Below are positions 25,810-61,105 of a stretch of 64,000 nt of DNA, one piece after another. Each line of letters starts with the position of its first letter. Positions within the stretch are counted from its first letter, which is position 1. The translations under genes and the position numbers were made by a program. The notes under the pieces are model-generated. The model did no database searches, was not told the origin of the DNA, and saw only the letters and a list, made by a program, of their open reading frames with translations. The stretch covers positions 24,940,097 through 25,004,096 of the forward strand of contig CM073324.1 in NCBI GenBank assembly GCA_037043015.1, read 5' to 3'. This stretch comes from Bryum argenteum (Eukaryota > Streptophyta > Bryopsida > Bryales > Bryaceae).

Positions 25810-26489
25810 GACTTGCTGGACATTTCGGGAGTGCTTAACCCTTAAGCGGGCCGAATGTCGAAAAACGACATTTTGGATGACACCAACTTTGGAGAGCCAT
25901 AACTTCTTCATCCGGACTCCGTTTTGGACGAAATCACTTGGGTTGGGTCCCAAATCAAGTCTAGTTTATGTAATAAAAATCTCAGACCCATACAATGAAG
26001 TATGAATTAATGGCATGCATTTCAGTGACAGCAGCCTAGTTTTAGACATTTTTTCCTTTGTAAAATTTAGGGCAGTTTTCACCATTGCAGGGCCATAATT
26101 TGCACAAAGAAATTTTTCTCATGGTTTTTTTTTTGTTCAAGGATGCTACTGAGATGAAGGTGAACAACATTCTAATTGGTGACTTTTTCATTGCAATAAG
26201 TCTAATGGTAGCATTTTCACTTTAAAGTGAAAATGATGAAATTATGTGATCATTTTTGAGTATTAATACATTATGATCTCGCAATCTATGAAGCCTCATG
26301 ACTCAAAATTTGACCCACATGATGTTCAATATGTCTACGACAAGATTGTACGGTTGAGATTTGGATAACACACTTTTACCTCCACCTATGACAATGCTTT
26401 TGAGGATGTGTTCATTTTACTACAAATGAGTCAAACCATTTAGGGGTTAATGAAGCAGGCAGCGCCATCATCGATGTAAACCCCTAATC
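25810..26489 (+). pseudogene. GPAT9 exon 2/intron 2 fragment, split by a transposon
   Basis: 25,810-25,838 plus 26,451-26,489 together match the complete gene at 28,546-28,612 (most of exon 2, its GT donor and the first bases of intron 2). Between them lies the TTAA element 25,839-26,446. The fragment then passes directly into plastid 16S rRNA sequence. It has no start codon and cannot make GPAT9. Its continuation (intron 2) is found inverted at 27,504-27,601. Confidence 0.9.
25839..26446. mobile_element. TTAA-flanked DNA transposon, copy E (608 bp), inserted in GPAT9 fragment
   Basis: TTAA lies at 25,835-25,838 and 26,447-26,450. The left end is CCCTTAAGCGGGCC and the right end is ATTTAGGGG. 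Internal sequence is shared with copy D. The complete GPAT9 exon 2 (TTAA at 28,571-28,574) and the inverted GPAT9 copy show the same site without the element, which proves the borders and the TTAA duplication. Confidence 0.92.
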
Positions 26490-26766
26490 ATGCCCGAAGT
26501 CGTTACCCTAACCGCAAGGAGGGGGATGCCGAAGGCAGGGCTAGTGACTGGAGTGAAGTCGTAACAAGGTAGCCGTAGTGGAAGGTGCGGCTGGATCACC
26601 TCCTTTTCAGGGAGAGCTAATGCTTATCGGACATTTTAATTCTACGCTACTTAGACCTAAAATACTCAAATTTGAAATAAATAAGTCAAGATTCTTGGGT
26701 CAAGATATGGGTTTAGTTTTTATAGCAAGCATGGTCATATATAATGCTCCTTTTCATTCATTATAA
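26489..26766 (+). pseudogene. Plastid 16S rRNA 3' end plus start of the 16S-23S spacer (nuclear plastid insertion)
   Basis: CATGCCCGAAGTCGTTACC through GGCTGGATCACCTCCTT (about 26,604) is the last ~115 nt of a plastid 16S rRNA, with the anti-Shine-Dalgarno core CCTCC. The plastid-type spacer (TTTTCAGGGAGAGCTAATGC...) follows. The rest of the 16S is absent here; the adjacent upstream part lies inverted at 27,602-27,745. Confidence 0.9.
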
Positions 26767-26790
26767 AAAAAAAATTAAAAATAAAGAAAA

Positions 26791-27061
26791 TTAACAAATT
26801 TTTAATTTACGAATACTTAATTTATTTATTAAATTTCCATAACTTGTTAAATTTGTTTGTGATAAATAACTTAAAAGACGCTTGCGTTTTCCCAAAATTT
26901 TCCATAAGCCTCTTTGAGATGAATAATCTTTTCCATGCCATTTTAAATAGTCTGTTAACTTTAAAACCCTATTATTTAGTCAAGTGAGAGATTTGAAATT
27001 CTACAGATCCTGTCTGTTCTTTAGAAAATGACGATGAACCAACAAATAATTTGTTGGACAT
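26791..27061 (-). pseudogene. rps15: Plastid rps15 copy (nuclear plastid insertion), one frameshift
   Basis: On the minus strand ATG at 27,061 opens MSNKLFVGSSSFSKEQTGSV; the rest reads ..LTDYLKWHGKDYSSQRGLWKILGKRKRLLSYLSQTNL.., the plastid ribosomal protein S15 family, with a stop at 26,791. The length is 271 bp, one more than a multiple of three. The extra base lies in the AAATAAT stretch near 26,971-26,977, and otherwise the frame is intact. It lies downstream of ycf1 on the same strand, as in plastid genomes. A fragment in the nucleus without plastid promoter is not expected to function. Confidence 0.9.
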
Positions 27062-27243
27062 AAAAGTATTGCTCCTAAATTATAAAATTTCATTATTTCA
27101 AAATAATTGATAATAAATTATAAGTCTTTATTATTATAAATAAAAAAAATAGTAAAAACTTAAAATTTGAAATAAATTTTCAAAAAGTATAAATAATGAG
27201 AAATTTTTGGTTATAACCAAGAATTTCTCAACAATTAAAAATT

Positions 27244-27503
27244 TTAAGTGTACATACGAATTCTTAACATAGTAAACCGACTTCCATTATTTGTATTAAA
27301 CCAGAATCGATTAATACATGCTAAATCTTCTAATCTAAAACTAGGCCAAAGAAAATGTTTAATTATTACATTTTGATTTTGATTTTTAATTTTTTGTAAT
27401 TTTATTAACTTTTTATCGTTTTTTTTTACAAAAGATTTATTTAAATTTAAACTTTTATTTTGATTAATTTTATTTTTATCCAAATAAAAAAGATTTAATA
27501 CAA
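27244..27503 (-). pseudogene. ycf1: Plastid ycf1 (TIC214) C-terminal fragment (nuclear plastid insertion)
   Basis: The minus strand encodes a lysine/asparagine-rich tail ending [37 protein letters not shown], the conserved C-terminus of Ycf1. Only about 85 codons are present. The upstream side stops abruptly at 27,503, where GPAT9 intron sequence begins. Confidence 0.9.
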
Positions 27504-27601
27504 ACTTGGATCCAAACCCCATAACCAATGCAGAATGTACTTTCAAATAAAGCCGAGTGATGTAAATACATGTGATGCTTTCGAGGTAAGAAGAAGAAGA
27601 G
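27504..27601 (-). pseudogene. GPAT9 intron 2 fragment, inverted
   Basis: The reverse complement matches 28,632-28,730 of the complete gene (intron 2 up to TTGGATCCAAGT), with the CTT-rich tract shortened. In the intact gene this piece directly follows the fragment at 25,810-26,489, so the two were separated by an inversion. Confidence 0.88.
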
Positions 27602-27745
27602 TGACGGGCTCCCATAGTGTGACGGGCGATTACTAGCGATTCCGGCTTCATGCAGGCGAGTTGCAGCCTGCAATCCGAACTGAGGCCGGGTTTTTGAGGT
27701 TAGCTTTCCCTCGCGGGGTCGCCGCAACCCTTTGTCCCGGCCATC
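27602..27745 (-). pseudogene. Plastid 16S rRNA fragment, inverted
   Basis: The minus strand reads ATGGCCGGGACAAAGGG ... GGAATCGCTAGTAATCG ... CCCGTCACACTATGGGAGC, plastid 16S sequence near E. coli positions 1240-1420. An internal stretch of about 55 nt between two CGCC motifs has been deleted, consistent with microhomology. Its 3' edge lies only 4 nt from the 5' edge of the fragment at 26,489 in an intact 16S. Confidence 0.88.
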
Positions 27746-53546: not shown

Positions 53547-54930
53547 AAAAGTTTTTGAACTGTGCTTTATGACAGGTAAGGGCATAACAACTCGGGCATT
53601 CTTGGTTTTGAGGAGCTTGCACTTCGATGTCGGGCAGAGGTAGCGTTTACAAAACAAACTAATTTTCGCAGCTTTATTACCAAACCTGCTGCCCAACTAC
53701 CGGCCCCTTGATAATTTTTGCTGCCCCGGGATACCCAACTGCCCAGGGAAGCCCGGACAATGTTTGCGTGCAATACTTTGGTGCACATCTTTGGCATTTT
53801 GTACTTAACTTGGCCTGTGACAGTTGAAACCATTGCCTCATTTGCTCATGTTGGCGATTAAACTCTCGTACATTTTCAGACCTTGTTTTCATTAGAGTTT
53901 TACAGAGATCTGAGAGCGGTTGTTTTAGGGTTTCTTGTAGGTGTTGGGGTGATGGCTCCGTGGCCTTCAAGTCTTCTAGCAGGGATGAAAGTGAAGTTTT
54001 TTGGAAGCACTAGAAACAGTTCTAGGGTGGGGAAATATTTGATGGAGTCTCCTCTGTTTGGATTGATGGTTTGTTGCAGTTTGACGTCACTCACATTCCT
54101 TAGACGCGTTTGGAGGGATTGATGTCCTTGCCTGCAGCGCCGGAGCACTCTATGGCTACGGTGACCTCGCCGATCACACCCTGTGCTCTTCTGAGATCAA
54201 AGAAGAGGAAGACCCTGAGTTTTGTGAGTGGTGCTGTGCCGGCGAAAAGGAGAGCTTTGGAGAATGGCGCAAGTGCTGTGATTTGACGCTGGTAGGAAGT
54301 GTTGGCCGCAAAATACACTTGGGCAGAGGGGGTGTTTGACAATGCGGGTAAGCTTTTTACTTGTTTTAATTAAATTTTTTTTTCTTAGCTATTTTGTAAC
54401 ATTGTGGGGTTGTTTTGGGATGCAGGTAACATTGTAGGGGTGTTGTGCACCACCTGCAGGGCACATGTACACTAAACCAGTACAAATTGTAGTCAGAGGG
54501 CAGATTTCAGGAGTGAGTTGCACAAAATTGTATGTCAAATAAATTATAGAAAACTATAGGGGTTTAGGATACAATAATATGGTTGTAGACACAATTTATC
54601 ACCTATGTTTGATGTTTTTATTTTTAGAATGTGCTTGAAATGAACACAAAGAGTATATTTATATACTAGCATATACTTGTCACAAATCTGAATTTGACAA
54701 AAATATACTTTTTTGGGCAAGAAATATTGTACAATCTAAGCTCAACTCATCAATTATATAATGCATGCATATTCTCTAATTACGATACATCAACCAATTT
54801 GCAACCTAGAGTATAAATTGTCATTTATAGAAAGAAATGCCTTATTTTACTCAGCACAAAAAAAAGCAAGTGAATAAGTTTTTATGGTTGAAATTTCTCT
54901 ACGTACTATTTAATGTCTACAACATCTAGG
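53547..54930. other. Unassigned stretch left of the retrotransposon
   Basis: 53,580-54,350 is richer in GC than its flanks and has overlapping open frames on both strands (up to 97 codons), none with a motif I recognise. It could be remains of a gene or element. 54,350-54,930 is AT-rich and contains nothing recognisable. Confidence 0.35.
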
Positions 54931-54950
54931 TGTTAGGGACATAGGCTCCG

Positions 54951-55118
54951 GAACCTTCTAGAAGGAAGTCTCTAGAAGTCTCTGGAACCTTCTAGAAAGA
55001 AAGTCTCTAGAACCTTCTAGAAGGAAGTCTTTAGAACCTTCTAGAAGGAAGTTTTTAGAACCTTCTAGAAGCTAGTCTCTGGAACCTTCTAGAATCTAGT
55101 CTCTGGAACCTTCTAGAA
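54951..55118 (+). promoter_or_regulatory. Array of heat-shock elements in the 5' LTR (7 perfect trimers)
   Basis: GAACCTTCTAGAA, a perfect GAAnnTTCnnGAA heat-shock factor site, occurs seven times, with further TTCTAGAA half-sites downstream to about 55,218, all upstream of the TATA box. HSF binding is inferred from the consensus only. Confidence 0.75.
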
Positions 55119-55218
55119 GCATCCTAGCTGGTAAAAGTTCTAGAAGCATCCTAGCTGGTAGAAGTTCTAGAAACATCCTAGCTGGTAGAAGTTCTAGAAG
55201 CTTCTTGGGTTCTAGAAG

Positions 55219-55226
55219 TATAAATA
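55219..55226 (+). promoter_or_regulatory. TATA box of the 5' LTR
   Basis: TATAAATA. A start site about 31 bp downstream would fall at 55,250, the first base of CAGTCTCGACAA. Confidence 0.7.
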
Positions 55227-55388
55227 GGAGTCGAGGCTGAAGAGTTCTTCAGTCTCGACAACACATCTCTTGGAGCTCTAGCTCACCTCTCTTAGTGTTG
55301 TTCGTGTACTCTTCTTGTTAATTCAAGCTCTTGTCAGTTTTCGTTAGTTTCCAGATATTCTTGTCATCTGTTTCGTGTCCCTGACAGT

Positions 55389-55400
55389 TTGTCGAGACTG
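55389..55400 (+). promoter_or_regulatory. Probable self-primer binding site
   Basis: TTGTCGAGACTG, two bases after the 5' LTR, is the exact reverse complement of CAGTCTCGACAA at 55,250-55,261, the predicted 5' end of the transcript. No tRNA-type site (TGG...) is present there. In Tf1 of fission yeast the mRNA 5' end primes reverse transcription in this way. Confidence 0.65.
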
Positions 55401-58400
55401 CCTTCTCACAGATATCAGATATAGTCCCTTCTTGTTGGAGAGAGTGGATTACCCCTCTTCTTGGAGTCTTTAGACGTTTTAGAGGTTGCGGAGTACCCTC
55501 CTTTAAACCAATATTGTTCTCTTGTCAAATTTTTTCTTTTCATTCGTAGATTTGGTCAAAGATCAAGACGTCAATATGGCTGAAAATTTGGAATCCAAAT
55601 TGGACGCCATCATGAATCGCTTCTTGCTACGTTATCACAGACAAGCGGAGATAGAAGGAGCCATGGCAAGATTTCACAATGATGGAAAGATCCGGGATAA
55701 CATCATCCGCGATTCACCAGTCTCAAGCTACTACACCGGAGGAGGCGACTACACTTTTAGTTTAACAAACCCAATGATTCAACAACGGAAGGAGCCTAGA
55801 GTTAGTCTTCCCGACAAGTTCGACGGAACGCGTTCCAAGTTTCGAGGTTTTGTCAACCAAATCGGTTGATAACGATTTTACAAATGAAACGATATCCGAC
55901 GGAGGAGGCGCGTGTTGAACTTGTTGGAACTCGCTTTACAGACAAGCTCTGCCGTGGTTCGCCCCTTGTTCGGTAAACGATCGCCAATTAAACGAAGAAC
56001 TTTGAGACGTTCTTGGAAGATTTGCGAAGATTTGGCGAATATGACAAGTTCGATGGGCTACAACAAAGATCCGCTCACTACGACAAGGACGCGCTCTGCG
56101 GCGGTCTACGCGATCGGATTTGCACAACCGGCTAGTGACATCAATCAATCGAGGAAGAAGCGTTGGTGAGTCGGTTTTATTGGGGTTTGAGGATGATGTG
56201 AAGGACCTACTTTTATCCCTTCCCGATCCGCAAACGCTCAACGGCCCATAAGCCAAGTCAGTCAGTCGACAACCGTTTATTCCAAATCGTCAAGACCAGC
56301 CCCAAAATACCAAACGAATCGCTACATCACGAGTATGTTGGCAAACAATTTGAGTTCTCATTCGGAGGCGAGGCCACGCAAATCGACGCAACGTGTCGGA
56401 GGCCGTTAGCCTCTTACCCGAAAGGCGTAAAAAAGAAGGACTTCTGTTTGACTGCTGATCATGAGAAGAAGGCCACAAGGTTGAAATTGCCCCAAGCGAG
56501 AAACCGAGATTGTTAAGACTAGAGTGCGGTGATCCCGAAAACGACGATCTTGCGTGCACAAGAGGAACCGTGCGGGCTGGGCGATTAATCCGCGACAACA
56601 ATCGTGTTCCTCTTTCTCCGCCCAACCCGCCCATTGTTTTTCAATTCCCTGTCTCTCTTGGTCCTCAAAAACACAAAACTTTAGCGCTATTAGATTCGGG
56701 AGCATCTACTTGTTTTTAGATGAAGAATTTCTTAAGCGTCACGATTCGTCTAAAGACAGAATCCAAACCTGTTCACGTAGAGGTGATAGATGGACGACCT
56801 TTATTGTTCTGCAAAGATCACCCATGAATCGCACCTATAGAGGTGGCGTTTAAGGACCATAGTAGTTACGTTGTTTTTAATGTCATTAACCCCACAAACC
56901 CTCGTCATCCTGGTCTCTCCTGGTTAGAACAACATAATCCTACCATAGATTGGAAGTTGCGGAAAATGACTTTTTCCAAAGAACATTCCAAGAACCAACC
57001 TAAGAGACATCCCAAGATAGGGAAACCATTGTTTATTGGAGCAAGGGCGTTCAGACGATCATCCAAAGAAGGAGCACCCTTCGTCATCTATGCAAATTTC
57101 ACTAAAGACGGAGAAGAAGAGTTCGACGGCAAGATACCAGAAAGAATACTGAGATTTTGAGACGTGTTTGAAGAAGAACGCGACATGCTACGAAAATCGG
57201 CCATACGATCCGCGCTTATAAAACCTCGCTAGAAGGAGCACAACCGCCTTTTTGGCCCAATCTACAATCTCTCAAACGGAGTTAATGGAAATTGCGAAAA
57301 TACATTGACGAGAATCTAGCGAAGAACTTCATTCGTCATTCAAAGTCGCCAATGCAGACCGATCTTGTTTCAAGAAGAAGGATGGCTCCTTACGAATGTG
57401 CGTGGACTATCGAGGCCTCAACAAGGTAACTAAGAAAAATCGTTACCCGCTACCCCGATCTCTAGTCTCTTGGAGCAAATTCTCGGGCGTCAAAAGATCT
57501 TTACAAAAATGATCCGGGGGAGCTTACAACCTCGTGATTGATCGAGGAAGGAGATGAGTGGAAGACAACGTTCCGCATAAGGTATGGCCATTTTGAATAT
57601 AATGTCACGCTTTTGGCCTTACCAACGCCCCTACTGCTTTTCCAACACATGATGAATGACATCTTTCGGGAGTACTGACGACTTTGTTGTCATCTATCCT
57701 GGATGACATCCCGATATTTTCCAAAAACGAAGAGGAGCACGAGAAGCACGTTCGCCTAGTCCTCGAAAACTACGAACGGCGATCGACGCCAAGATGGAAA
57801 AGTGCCTATTCCACCAAAACCGAGATGGAGTTTAGGGTTCATTGCGACTACGAGACGGCTTGAAGATGGACCCCAAGAAGGTGGAAGCAATTGTATCGTG
57901 GGAGGTTCCGAAGACGGTTAGAGACGTCTGATGTTTTCTTGGATTTCGCAACTTCTATCGGATCTTCATCAAGAATTATTCTCATGTCACTCTCCACTCA
58001 CCCGATTGACGTGTAAGGACAAGCTAGAATGGGGACCCAAGCCGAACGAGCATTTCAAGATCTCAAGACGGCGTTTACTACGGCTCCCAATCTGCTGCAC
58101 TCTGACTTCAGAAAGGCCTTCTATTTGGAGACCGACGCTTGATTTTCTTTGAGTCGTCTTTTTCGCGAGATGGCGCAGACGGGAGGCTTCATCCAAATTG
58201 CGTTTTTATTCTCGGAAGTTCTCTCACGCGAAATTAACTACGAAATCCACGATAAGGAACTCCTGCCATAGTGGATTCCTTCCAAGAGCGGAGACACTTT
58301 CTCGGCGCCTTACAGATCCGGTGACCGTATCACGGATCACAAGAATTTGAAAGACTTCATGTCGGCTCGAATCACGAATCGACGCTGCCTCGGTGGAATA

Positions 58401-60534
58401 TGTCGTTGTCGCGATTTGATTTTGTTATCACCTATCGGCCCAGGAAGCGCAAGGACTATCGATCGTTATCGAGGAGATCGTATCTCACGCCTAAGACCGG
58501 AGAAGAAGCATTTGATCAACAATGCACTACATTGTTGAAACCGGAAGCGTTTTAGAATTTGCGTCATTGCCGCGCTAATTGATGCGACTTCCTCGACTGC
58601 GACGCGACCGTAACAACCAAAGATTCTCAGCTCTTGAGATCGAGAAGCGTCTGCGCGATAATGACAAGTTGAGTGGGAGGAGATCTTTTGTATTTTGAAG
58701 AAATGACTATATATTCCAAAGGGACCAACACGACTTGAGTTCTCCAATCTCGCCACGACTTTCCAAAGAAGGGGACATTTTGGATACAACAAGACATTGG
58801 AGCTTATTTCGCGAGATTTTTGGTGGCCTCAAATGTGGAAGGATGTGAAGGAGTTTGTCCTCTCTTGTGATATTTGTTCAAGGTCAAAGAACCCTCGGCA
58901 TCGCCCCTATGGACTTCTGCAGCCATTGCCTATTCCGCATCGACCATGGTCTTCAGTTTCCATGGACTTCATTACGGACCTGCCGCCTTCAAACTCGTTC
59001 GACAGCATCTTTGTTGTGGTGGATCGGCTTACAAAGATGGCGCATTTTATTCCTTGCAAGAAGACATCGTCAAAGCAAAAACAAAGTGAAGACTCTTCGA
59101 TAATATATATCGTTATCTTGGCTTGCCAGATGACATCGTGTCGGATCGAGGAACTCAGTTCGTCTCCAAATTCTGGAGATCTCTTTTCGAGATTTTGAAG
59201 GTGGATATCAAGCTTTCTTCAGCCTTTCATCCTCAAACTGACGGTCAGACGGAACGGGTAAATCAAGTCTTGGAGCAGTATCTACGCTGCACCATCAACT
59301 ACCGATTGGGCCGAATATCTACCGTTTGCCGAGTTTGCCTACAACAACACCCTTCATGCGTCGTCTCAACAAACACCGTTTTTGCCAATTATGGATACCA
59401 TCCGAAACTTGATTTGTTAAATCCAGTGGCCAATAACAACCCGGCAACAGAAGGCTTTGTGAGACAAATGATCGGAGCTTCAAGCTACGTTGCGACTTCA
59501 ATTACAAACCGCCCAAGAGTCTTACAAGGCGTCCGCAGATAAATTTCGAATAAGGCACCTACTTTCAAGATTGGAGATAAGGTATGGGCGCTTGACGAAA
59601 CATCAAGACCAAGCGGCCATGCGACAAGTTGGACTATCAAGATTGGGGCCGTTTGTCATCGGTAAGCAAATCAATCCAGCCAAGCGTATCGGCTAGAGCT
59701 ACCAAACAAGCTATGAAGGTACATCCAGGTCTTCCACGCGTCCTTGTTGGAACCCTTATCGAGTCTACTTTTCCCGGAAGAGTCAAAGCCCGCCACCTAG
59801 TGTCGAAATCGAGAACCATGAGGAATACGAGGTAGATAAGATACTAGATTCACGGCGAAGATGGGGAAAATTAGAATACCTCGTGCATTGGAGCGGCTAC
59901 GATATTAATGAACGAACATGGGAGGATGCCGAAAATCTCGCAAACGCGCCGAGAGAAGATGCAGGAGTTTCATCAACGATATCCTCGTAAACCTGCCCGG
60001 TTCGGCGATAGCTTCTTTCTCGACGCTTGTCCACCTGCGAATACGAATGGAGGAGCGCACCACAAAAATTCATAGTTGATGTGGTTATTTTGTCTAAGAT
60101 TGAGTAGAAATTTTCTAGTAGCCATAGTTTAGTCTCCTGATATGGATAATCAAGAGATAGAAAGTATGTCGATTATGTCATCTCAACCAAAGAAACTCAC
60201 GAAGACGACCTCGAGATGAAGAATCACTGCATCACCGCGACAACGACGAAGGATACCAAGAAACCGATCGGCGGTGATTGTATTCGAAATGGAGTCTGCG
60301 TTCAATGGTGTGCTGTAAGGCGTGTTTGCGGGACAATTTCACAAATGAAGACACGGAGGTTCATGCTTGGTCGGAAGTGGAAGGCGTGGGCCACTACCGT
60401 TGGCTTCAAGGACCAATGAACCACTTACCTCGTGAACAACAATTGGAGTTCATTGCAGACGTGATGCGGCAGATCTTCATTTTTCTGCGTTGGTATTAAC
60501 TCACAAACAACATTTCTTCTGAGACCTCGAAGCT

Positions 60535-60545
60535 AAAGGAGGGGG
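60535..60545 (+). promoter_or_regulatory. Polypurine tract of the chromovirus
   Basis: AAAGGAGGGGG lies just before the 3' LTR, the expected site for plus-strand priming. Confidence 0.8.
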
Positions 60546-60548
60546 TGA

Positions 60549-61100
60549 TGTTAGGGACATAGGCTCCGGAACCTTCTAGAAGGAAGTCTCTAGAAGTCTC
60601 TGGAACCTTCTAGAAAGAAAGTCTCTAGAACCTTCTAGAAGGAAGTCTTTAGAACCTTCTAGAAGGAAGTCTTTAGAACCTTCTAGAAGGAAGTCTTTAG
60701 AACCTTCTAGAAGCTAGTCTCTGGAACCTTCTAGAATCTAGTCTCTGGAACCTTCTAGAAGGAAGTCTTTAGAACCTTCTAGAAGCTAGTCTCTGGAACC
60801 TTCTAGAATCTAGTCTCTGGAACCTTCTAGAAGCATCCTAGCTGGTAAAAGTTCTAGAAGCATCCTAGCTGGTAGAAGTTCTAGAAGCATCCTAGCTGGT
60901 AGAAGTTCTAGAAGCTTCTTGGGTTCTAGAAGTATAAATAGGAGTCGAGGCTGAAGAGTTCTTCAGTCTCGACAACACATCTCTTGGAGCTCTAGCTCAC
61001 CTCTCTTAGTGTTATTCGTGTACTCTTCTTGTTAATTCAAGCTCTTGTCAGTTTTCATTAGTTTCCAGATATTCTTGTCATTTGTTTCGTGTCCCTGACA
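60549..61100 (+). repeat. 3' LTR of the chromovirus, with 11 heat-shock-element trimers
   Basis: Same ends as the 5' LTR. GAACCTTCTAGAA occurs 11 times between 60,569 and 60,832; TATAAATA lies at 60,933-60,940. The longer array explains the larger size (552 against 456 bp). Confidence 0.93.
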
Positions 61101-61105
61101 CTAGG

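What the first reader, a model, noticed from the sequence alone, without database searches (positions are those of the whole stretch)
55250..55400. Exact 12-nt complementarity suggests self-primed reverse transcription in a plant chromovirus
Seen: TTGTCGAGACTG right after the 5' LTR is the perfect reverse complement of CAGTCTCGACAA, which starts 31 bp after the beginning of TATAAATA, i.e. at the predicted transcript 5' end. No tRNA 3'-end complement is visible. Known: Tf1 and relatives (fungal and vertebrate chromoviruses) self-prime with the first ~11 nt of the mRNA; plant chromoviruses usually use a tRNA primer. Inference: a self-priming lineage in a plant.
Basis: partly seen in the sequence, partly recalled or inferred. 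Interest (0 to 1): 0.9.

Follow-up and report, generated by a model that had tools for sequence, protein, structure and literature searches.

The report
Self-primed retrotransposon in a moss-like plant
This is a damaged copy of a plant retrotransposon that, instead of borrowing a transfer RNA, very probably starts copying itself with the first eleven or so letters of its own RNA; the trick was already predicted for such elements in mosses, but here several versions of the start and its landing site have changed in step, which is strong evidence that the pairing is real.

Summary
Observation confirmed: CAGTCTCGACAA (55250-55261) and its exact reverse complement (55389-55400) lie 31 nt after the start of the TATA box and 2 nt after the 5' LTR of a broken Ty3 chromovirus (54931-61100, TSD CTAGG). 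In near copies the shared match is 11 nt, as in Tf1; 29 of 40 keep all 11. The covariation test succeeds: seven primer types, each complementary to its own site in the same two places; for the six compared, swapped R/PBS pairings share at most 5 nt against 9-11 within a type. None of 38 tRNAs of this genome matches better than 8 of 11. Self-priming is well supported; transcript start and primer cleavage are inferred. The novelty claim is weaker: the plastid contig carries chlB and chlN, so the host is not a flowering plant (probably a moss), and self-priming was already predicted for Tcn1-clade chromoviruses of mosses and club-mosses (Neumann 2019). Added here: covariation evidence, a Tf1-like duplex beside the site in four types but not in the window's own, and heat-shock-element arrays in the LTRs of the window's lineage. 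Verdict: new member of a known kind.

The parts
54926..54930 (.). target-site duplication CTAGG (left)
   Evidence: read directly; same 5 bp at 61101-61105
54931..55386 (+). 5' LTR, TG...CA
54951..55204 (+). eight perfect three-unit heat-shock elements (GAAnnTTCnnGAA or TTCnnGAAnnTTC) in U3, in and beside 24-bp and 27-bp tandem repeats
55219..55226 (+). TATA box TATAAATA
55230..55240 (+). U3 arm GTCGAGGCTGA, inverted repeat of the R start (55249-55259); possible U3-R hairpin around the start site
55251..55261 (+). predicted first 11 nt of the transcript (R start), the proposed self-primer AGTCTCGACAA
55387..55388 (+). 2-nt spacer GT between LTR and primer-binding site
55389..55399 (+). primer-binding site TTGTCGAGACT, complementary to 55251-55261 (one further pair, 55250:55400, in this copy)
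58797..59198 (+). integrase fragment (H2C2 zinc-binding domain) of a broken pol region
60535..60545 (+). purine run AAAGGAGGGGG before the 3' LTR, likely polypurine tract
   Evidence: read directly
60549..61100 (+). 3' LTR, longer by additional tandem repeats in U3
61101..61105 (.). target-site duplication CTAGG (right)
   Evidence: read directly

Best explanation
The element is a defective copy of a Ty3-type chromovirus family that primes reverse transcription with the 5' end of its own RNA. Transcription would start at A55251; the first 11 nt pair with the site 2 nt after the LTR; the element's RNase H would cut after nt 11 and the 11-mer would prime minus-strand strong-stop synthesis; integrase would later remove the 2-nt spacer. 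The complementarity, its position and its covariation are shown by sequence; start site, cleavage, extension and spacer removal are inferred from Tf1 and general LTR-element biology.
For: Position: in the six types compared the match begins 28-32 nt after a TATA-like box and the site 1-2 nt after the LTR CA; for F4, F5 and F6 the LTR ends are confirmed by LTR pairs (98-99% identical), for F5 and F6 also by 5-bp duplications. Covariation: within a type 9-11 nt (first 13 nt of each side compared), between types at most 5; F1 and F2 differ at three paired positions, all compensated; a seventh type (L146) differs from F4 by one compensated pair. Conservation: 29 of 40 near copies have 11 of 11, 2 have 10, 6 have 9, 2 have 8, 1 has 5. 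No tRNA: best 3'-anchored match 8 of 11 among 38 distinct tRNAs; none of the six sites begins with TGG. Internal control: two distant loci show TGGTATC 2 nt after a CA, one of them the full TGGTATCAGAGC that I recall as the initiator-tRNA-Met site. In the integrase tree the 10 self-priming rows plus L103 (primer not identified) are split from these two at 100/100.
Against: No transcript data: +1 is predicted. 11 of 40 near copies have an imperfect match, no compensated change was seen inside F1, and the R start is not more conserved (0.959) than the 28 nt after it (0.981). Of 39 diverged loci, 18 pass the filter and are accepted and 2 more carry the F1 motifs (L071, L098); 3 show one part only (L072, L075, L086), 2 have the tRNA-Met-like site and 14 show nothing I could accept. 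F3 lacks a recognised LTR pair. In F2 the match runs 2-3 nt beyond the predicted +1 (13-14 nt). Unconstrained folding forms the primer:PBS helix in the minimum-energy structure only in F3 (pair probabilities 0.66-0.99); F1 0.23-0.62, F2 0.22-0.28, F4-F6 0; forcing the helix costs 1.5 kcal/mol in F1, nothing in F3 and 4.3 in F5. Pseudoknots are not represented there. The Tf1-like flanking duplex is not significant in F1 or F2.
Confidence: 0.9

Rival explanations
1. A tRNA or half-tRNA primes at this site and the match to the R start is incidental.
For: Two related loci in the same genome have a tRNA-Met-like site at the same position; six amino-acid classes of tRNA were not tested.
Against: None of the six sites compared begins with TGG; best 3'-anchored tRNA match 8 of 11, longest run anywhere in a tRNA 6-7 nt, against 9-11 for the R start. 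An incidental match would not recur in seven types.
Confidence: 0.03
2. The inverted match is a structural element of the RNA leader (dimerisation, packaging or translation control), not a primer.
For: Covariation shows pairing, not its purpose; the pairing also closes the leader.
Against: One arm sits where a primer-binding site is expected, 1-2 nt after the LTR, and the other begins at the predicted +1 in most types; no tRNA-like site is present there.
Confidence: 0.06
3. Chance, or a by-product of the U3-R inverted repeat.
For: F1 has a U3-R inverted repeat using the same letters.
Against: Hits in 14 of 28 loci against 0.3 expected; F3, F4 and F5 have no significant U3-R repeat yet keep the R/PBS match.
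Confidence: 0.01

Closest known systems
Tf1/sushi chromoviruses (Tf1, Tf2, Tj1, Tosmo1-3)
   Same: First ~11 nt of the RNA match a site just after the 5' LTR (PMC7175516, passages; PMC4600332, passages); chromodomain integrase; in F3-F6 also a duplex between U5 and the sequence after the site, like one of those in the 'pretzel' of PMC10085805 (passages and part 1 of section 28).
   Different: Plant host; the window's own type F1 and type F2 lack a significant flanking duplex, and the second flanking duplex is significant in no type; cleavage not shown.
Tcn1 clade of moss and club-moss chromoviruses
   Same: Self-priming predicted for the majority of members (PMC6317226, passages); group I chromodomain (PMC3350952, passages); nonseed host.
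   Different: No reference sequences were at hand, so clade placement was not tested; PMC2864245 (passages) found neither tRNA nor self-priming evidence for SM-Tcn1 of Selaginella.
TAR lineage of plant Ty1/copia (Houba, Osr-1)
   Same: Predicted self-priming in plants (passages).
   Different: Different superfamily.
ONSEN (heat-activated copia element of Arabidopsis, superfamily recalled)
   Same: Heat-shock elements in the LTR (PMC8376061, passages).
   Different: Different superfamily; heat response of the present element is untested.

Membership tests
Tf1/sushi-type self-primed chromoviruses | RNA 5' end (about 11 nt) complementary to the PBS | tested here: met
   11 nt in F1, 11 (13-14 with the bases before the predicted +1) in F2, 9-10 in the others; +1 itself predicted
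Tf1/sushi-type self-primed chromoviruses | PBS just after the 5' LTR and not matching a tRNA 3' end | tested here: met
   1-2 nt spacer; 38 tRNAs, best 8 of 11; six amino-acid classes not in the set
Tf1/sushi-type self-primed chromoviruses | primer and PBS stay complementary between families (covariation) | tested here: met
   swap matrix of six types: 9-11 within, <=5 between
Tf1/sushi-type self-primed chromoviruses | two further duplexes between PBS-flanking sequence and the LTR ('pretzel', U5-IR) | tested here: inconclusive
   downstream duplex in F3-F6: shuffle P 0-0.0075 with a 22-nt flank, 0-0.06 with a 70-nt flank; not in F1 or F2 (P 0.68-0.85); upstream duplex significant in none (P 0.19-0.98)
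Tf1/sushi-type self-primed chromoviruses | RNase H cut after nt 11 and extension of the primer | not testable with these tools
   needs RNA or cDNA
Chromovirus (Ty3 with chromodomain integrase) | pol order RT-RNase H-integrase with C-terminal chromodomain | tested here: met
   RVT_1, RT_RNaseH, H2C2, rve, SH3_Tf2-1, Chromo in relative L025; of three window frames scanned only one gave a hit, H2C2
Tcn1 clade | group I (classical) chromodomain with the Y, W, Y/F cage residues | tested here: met
   L025 aligns with CDYL and HP1 chromodomains with Y, W and Y in place (residue roles from PMC3350952); a relative, not the window copy; group I is not unique to Tcn1
Tcn1 clade | nonseed plant (or fungal) host | tested here: inconclusive
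   contig C12 has chlB, chlN (in two frames) and matK, which excludes angiosperms (recalled) but not gymnosperms by itself; genome size of 259 Mb speaks for a bryophyte
Tcn1 clade | RT/integrase phylogeny with Tcn1 references | not testable with these tools
   no named reference sequences in the held collections

The most novel reading that the evidence does not exclude
In this plant the primer and its site act as a fast-changing private lock and key for each retrotransposon family (seven versions found), so families replicate without priming one another; the window's lineage additionally carries heat-shock-factor promoters and has replaced the Tf1-type flanking duplex by a U3-R hairpin that hides the second copy of the primer sequence near the RNA 3' end.
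Probability: 0.15. Interest if true: 0.6.

Novelty: new member of a known kind. Interest (0 to 1): 0.42.

Why it matters
Self-priming in land-plant chromoviruses rests, as far as I saw, on sequence prediction, and one study found no evidence for it in a Selaginella element. A set of co-varying primer/site pairs in one genome turns it into a tested inference and offers a natural series for studying how the primer is made. The heat-shock-element arrays suggest when such elements would be transcribed.

Tried and rejected
Scan of the window for the 12-mer with 2 mismatches: 7 hits, not above chance (mean 4.64; 22 of 100 shuffles reach 7); only the exact ones matter. Hits rejected as unrelated: L083 85-197, L147 (a 22-nt inverted repeat, perhaps another element) and L150 (AT-rich, no LTR seen). 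L081: a family beside F6 in the integrase tree (98/97), but no LTR pair or primer pair was recognised. Of 39 diverged loci, 14 show nothing acceptable (L077, L081, L087, L089, L093-L097, L147, L149, L150, L154, L156); apart from L081 I did not check whether their stretches contain a 5' LTR end. RNA folding gave mixed support. The upstream 'pretzel' duplex was significant in no type. The U3-R hairpin is strong in F1 (0 of 300 shuffles in two of three examples, P 0.04 in the third), weak in F2 and F6 (0.08, 0.07), absent in F3-F5. The RT tree places the tRNA-Met rows beside F1/F2 on a long branch, unlike the integrase tree; both are unrooted. Clade placement against named references could not be done. 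The protein search gave no organism names. In one search three minus-strand copies (L004, L006, L007) were aligned in the wrong orientation; corrected. One search compared a piece with itself and only served to show its letters.

Full report
What is there. The window holds a Ty3-type LTR element at 54931-61100, flanked by CTAGG on both sides (read). The 5' LTR is 54931-55386 and the 3' LTR 60549-61100; the latter has extra tandem repeats. TATAAATA starts at 55219. The 12-mer at 55250-55261 and its exact reverse complement at 55389-55400 are real, the second starting 2 nt after the LTR. The coding region of this copy is broken: only short frames remain, one with an integrase H2C2 domain, and it shows 73 gap openings over 3.3 kb against a related copy.

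Near copies. A DNA search of the own genome (258.8 Mb, 25 contigs) scored 40 of 412 candidate copies of the LTR-to-leader region. All 40 were read. 29 of 40 have a complete 11-nt match AGTCTCGACAA/TTGTCGAGACT, 2 have 10, 6 have 9, 2 have 8, 1 has 5. The twelfth pair of the window copy is seen in 4 of the 37 copies that one search aligned in the right orientation, so the family feature is 11 nt, the length reported for Tf1 (PMC7175516, passages). Mean column identity is 0.991 in the site and 0.959 in the R start, against 0.942 over the whole stretch and 0.981 in the 28 nt after the R start; so the site, but not the R start, stands out.

Covariation. I searched the genome with a piece of integrase (150 of 1775 candidates scored) and read stretches upstream of 39 diverged matches (8, 20, 11). 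With a filter requiring a TATA-like box 20-36 nt upstream and CA 1-2 nt before the right arm, 14 of the first 28 loci gave a >=9-nt match, against 0.3 in simulated sequence; of the other 11, six passed against 0.28, of which I accept four (L146, L151, L152, L155) and reject two (L147, L150). Two loci outside the filter also carry the F1 motifs (L071; L098). Of the remaining 19, three show one part only, two have a tRNA-Met-like site and 14 nothing acceptable. Seven types result: F1 AGTCTCGACAA; F2 ACTCTCTTCAA; F3 ATGTAAACCT; F4 ACGCAACCT; the L146 type ATGCAACCT; F5 GTGTAATAT; F6 ATCTGGTATT. Each has its exact complement 1-2 nt after a CA. For the six named with F numbers, the R start of one type and the site of another share at most 5 nt, against 9-11 within a type. 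F1 and F2 differ at three positions, all compensated; F4 and the L146 type at one, compensated. In F2 the match runs on for 2-3 nt before the predicted +1. LTR ends of F4, F5 and F6 were checked against their 3' LTRs; F5 and F6 also show 5-bp duplications (CGGGG, ATACC), F4 does not show matching flanks, and for F3 no LTR pair was found in the stretches held.

tRNA priming. Of 64 listed tRNA matches in the genome I read 40, nuclear and from contig C12, giving 38 distinct tRNAs. The best 3'-anchored match at any of the six sites is 8 of 11, the longest run anywhere 7 nt. Met, Val, Pro, Cys, Trp and Glu tRNAs were not among them. None of the six sites begins with TGG. Two distant loci, L148 and L153, show TGGTATC two bases after a CA; in L153 the full TGGTATCAGAGC is present, which I recall as the initiator-tRNA-Met site. 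I did not confirm their LTR pairs. So tRNA-primed relatives seem to live in the same genome. The integrase tree splits these two from the 10 self-priming rows and L103 at 100/100; the RT tree does not clearly do so.

RNA structure. Tf1-type self-priming needs duplexes beside the site ('pretzel', PMC10085805). A 13-14-position duplex (with mismatches in F3, F4 and F6) between U5 and the sequence starting 6-9 nt after the site has shuffle P 0-0.0075 in F3-F6 with a 22-nt flank and 0-0.06 with a 70-nt flank, but none in F1 or F2; the upstream duplex is significant in none. Folding without pseudoknots forms the primer helix with high probability (0.66-0.99) in F3, with 0.23-0.62 in F1, 0.22-0.28 in F2 and 0 in F4-F6. 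F1 has instead an inverted repeat between U3 and the R start, meaning unknown.

Host and clade. Contig C12 (114.6 kb) carries chlB, chlN (in two frames; one of the two pieces passes an NCBIfam cut-off) and matK, and a frame that I read as atpA by eye: a plastid of a streptophyte that is not an angiosperm (recalled). The related copy L025 has RT, RNase H, integrase, an SH3_Tf2-1 domain and a classical chromodomain with the three cage aromatics. Together with self-priming this fits the Tcn1 clade, which could not be tested by phylogeny; PMC3350952 (passages) reports group I chromodomains also in green algae and in Galadriel-like elements of Selaginella.

What is known. Neumann 2019 (PMC6317226, passages) predicted self-priming for 12% of the plant LTR elements surveyed, names the Tcn1 and TAR lineages, and contrasts Tcn1 with all other plant chromovirus clades. 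Beta chromoviruses use tRNA-Met (PMC3605345, passages). Novikova 2010 (PMC2864245, passages) found no evidence of either in SM-Tcn1. Searches of the held library for self-priming with chromovirus, Tcn1, moss, Tf1 and bryophyte terms listed no paper that, from the titles and the passages I read, reports primer/site covariation in plants; subscription journals are mostly not held, and supplementary files could not be read.

Heat-shock elements. U3 of the window copy has eight perfect three-unit heat-shock elements, against 0.014 in simulated sequence; eight F1 and F2 relatives have 4-7 in 320 nt, one example each of F3-F6 none. In Physcomitrium a Ty3 family, RLG2, is induced by heat and RLG1 repressed (PMC7466625, passages). 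Whether the present family responds to heat is untested.

Conclusion.

Noticed in passing
54951-55204 and 60564-60933: Dense arrays of perfect heat-shock elements in the LTR U3 of the window's lineage (F1, F2), none in the F3-F6 examples: a candidate heat-driven promoter.
   Followed up: partly
55230-55259: Inverted repeat between U3 and the R start around the predicted start site; strong in F1, weak or absent elsewhere.
   Followed up: partly
54931-61100: Internal region has many indels (73 gap openings in 3.3 kb against L025) while the two LTRs differ little apart from repeat number; the copy may have moved in trans, or the LTRs were converted.
   Followed up: no
26460-27744: Two fragments matching bacterial-type small-subunit rRNA, on opposite strands; perhaps organelle DNA inserted in the nucleus.
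   Followed up: no
L148, L153: Related Ty3 elements with a tRNA-Met-like primer site seem to coexist with self-priming ones in the same genome.
   Followed up: partly
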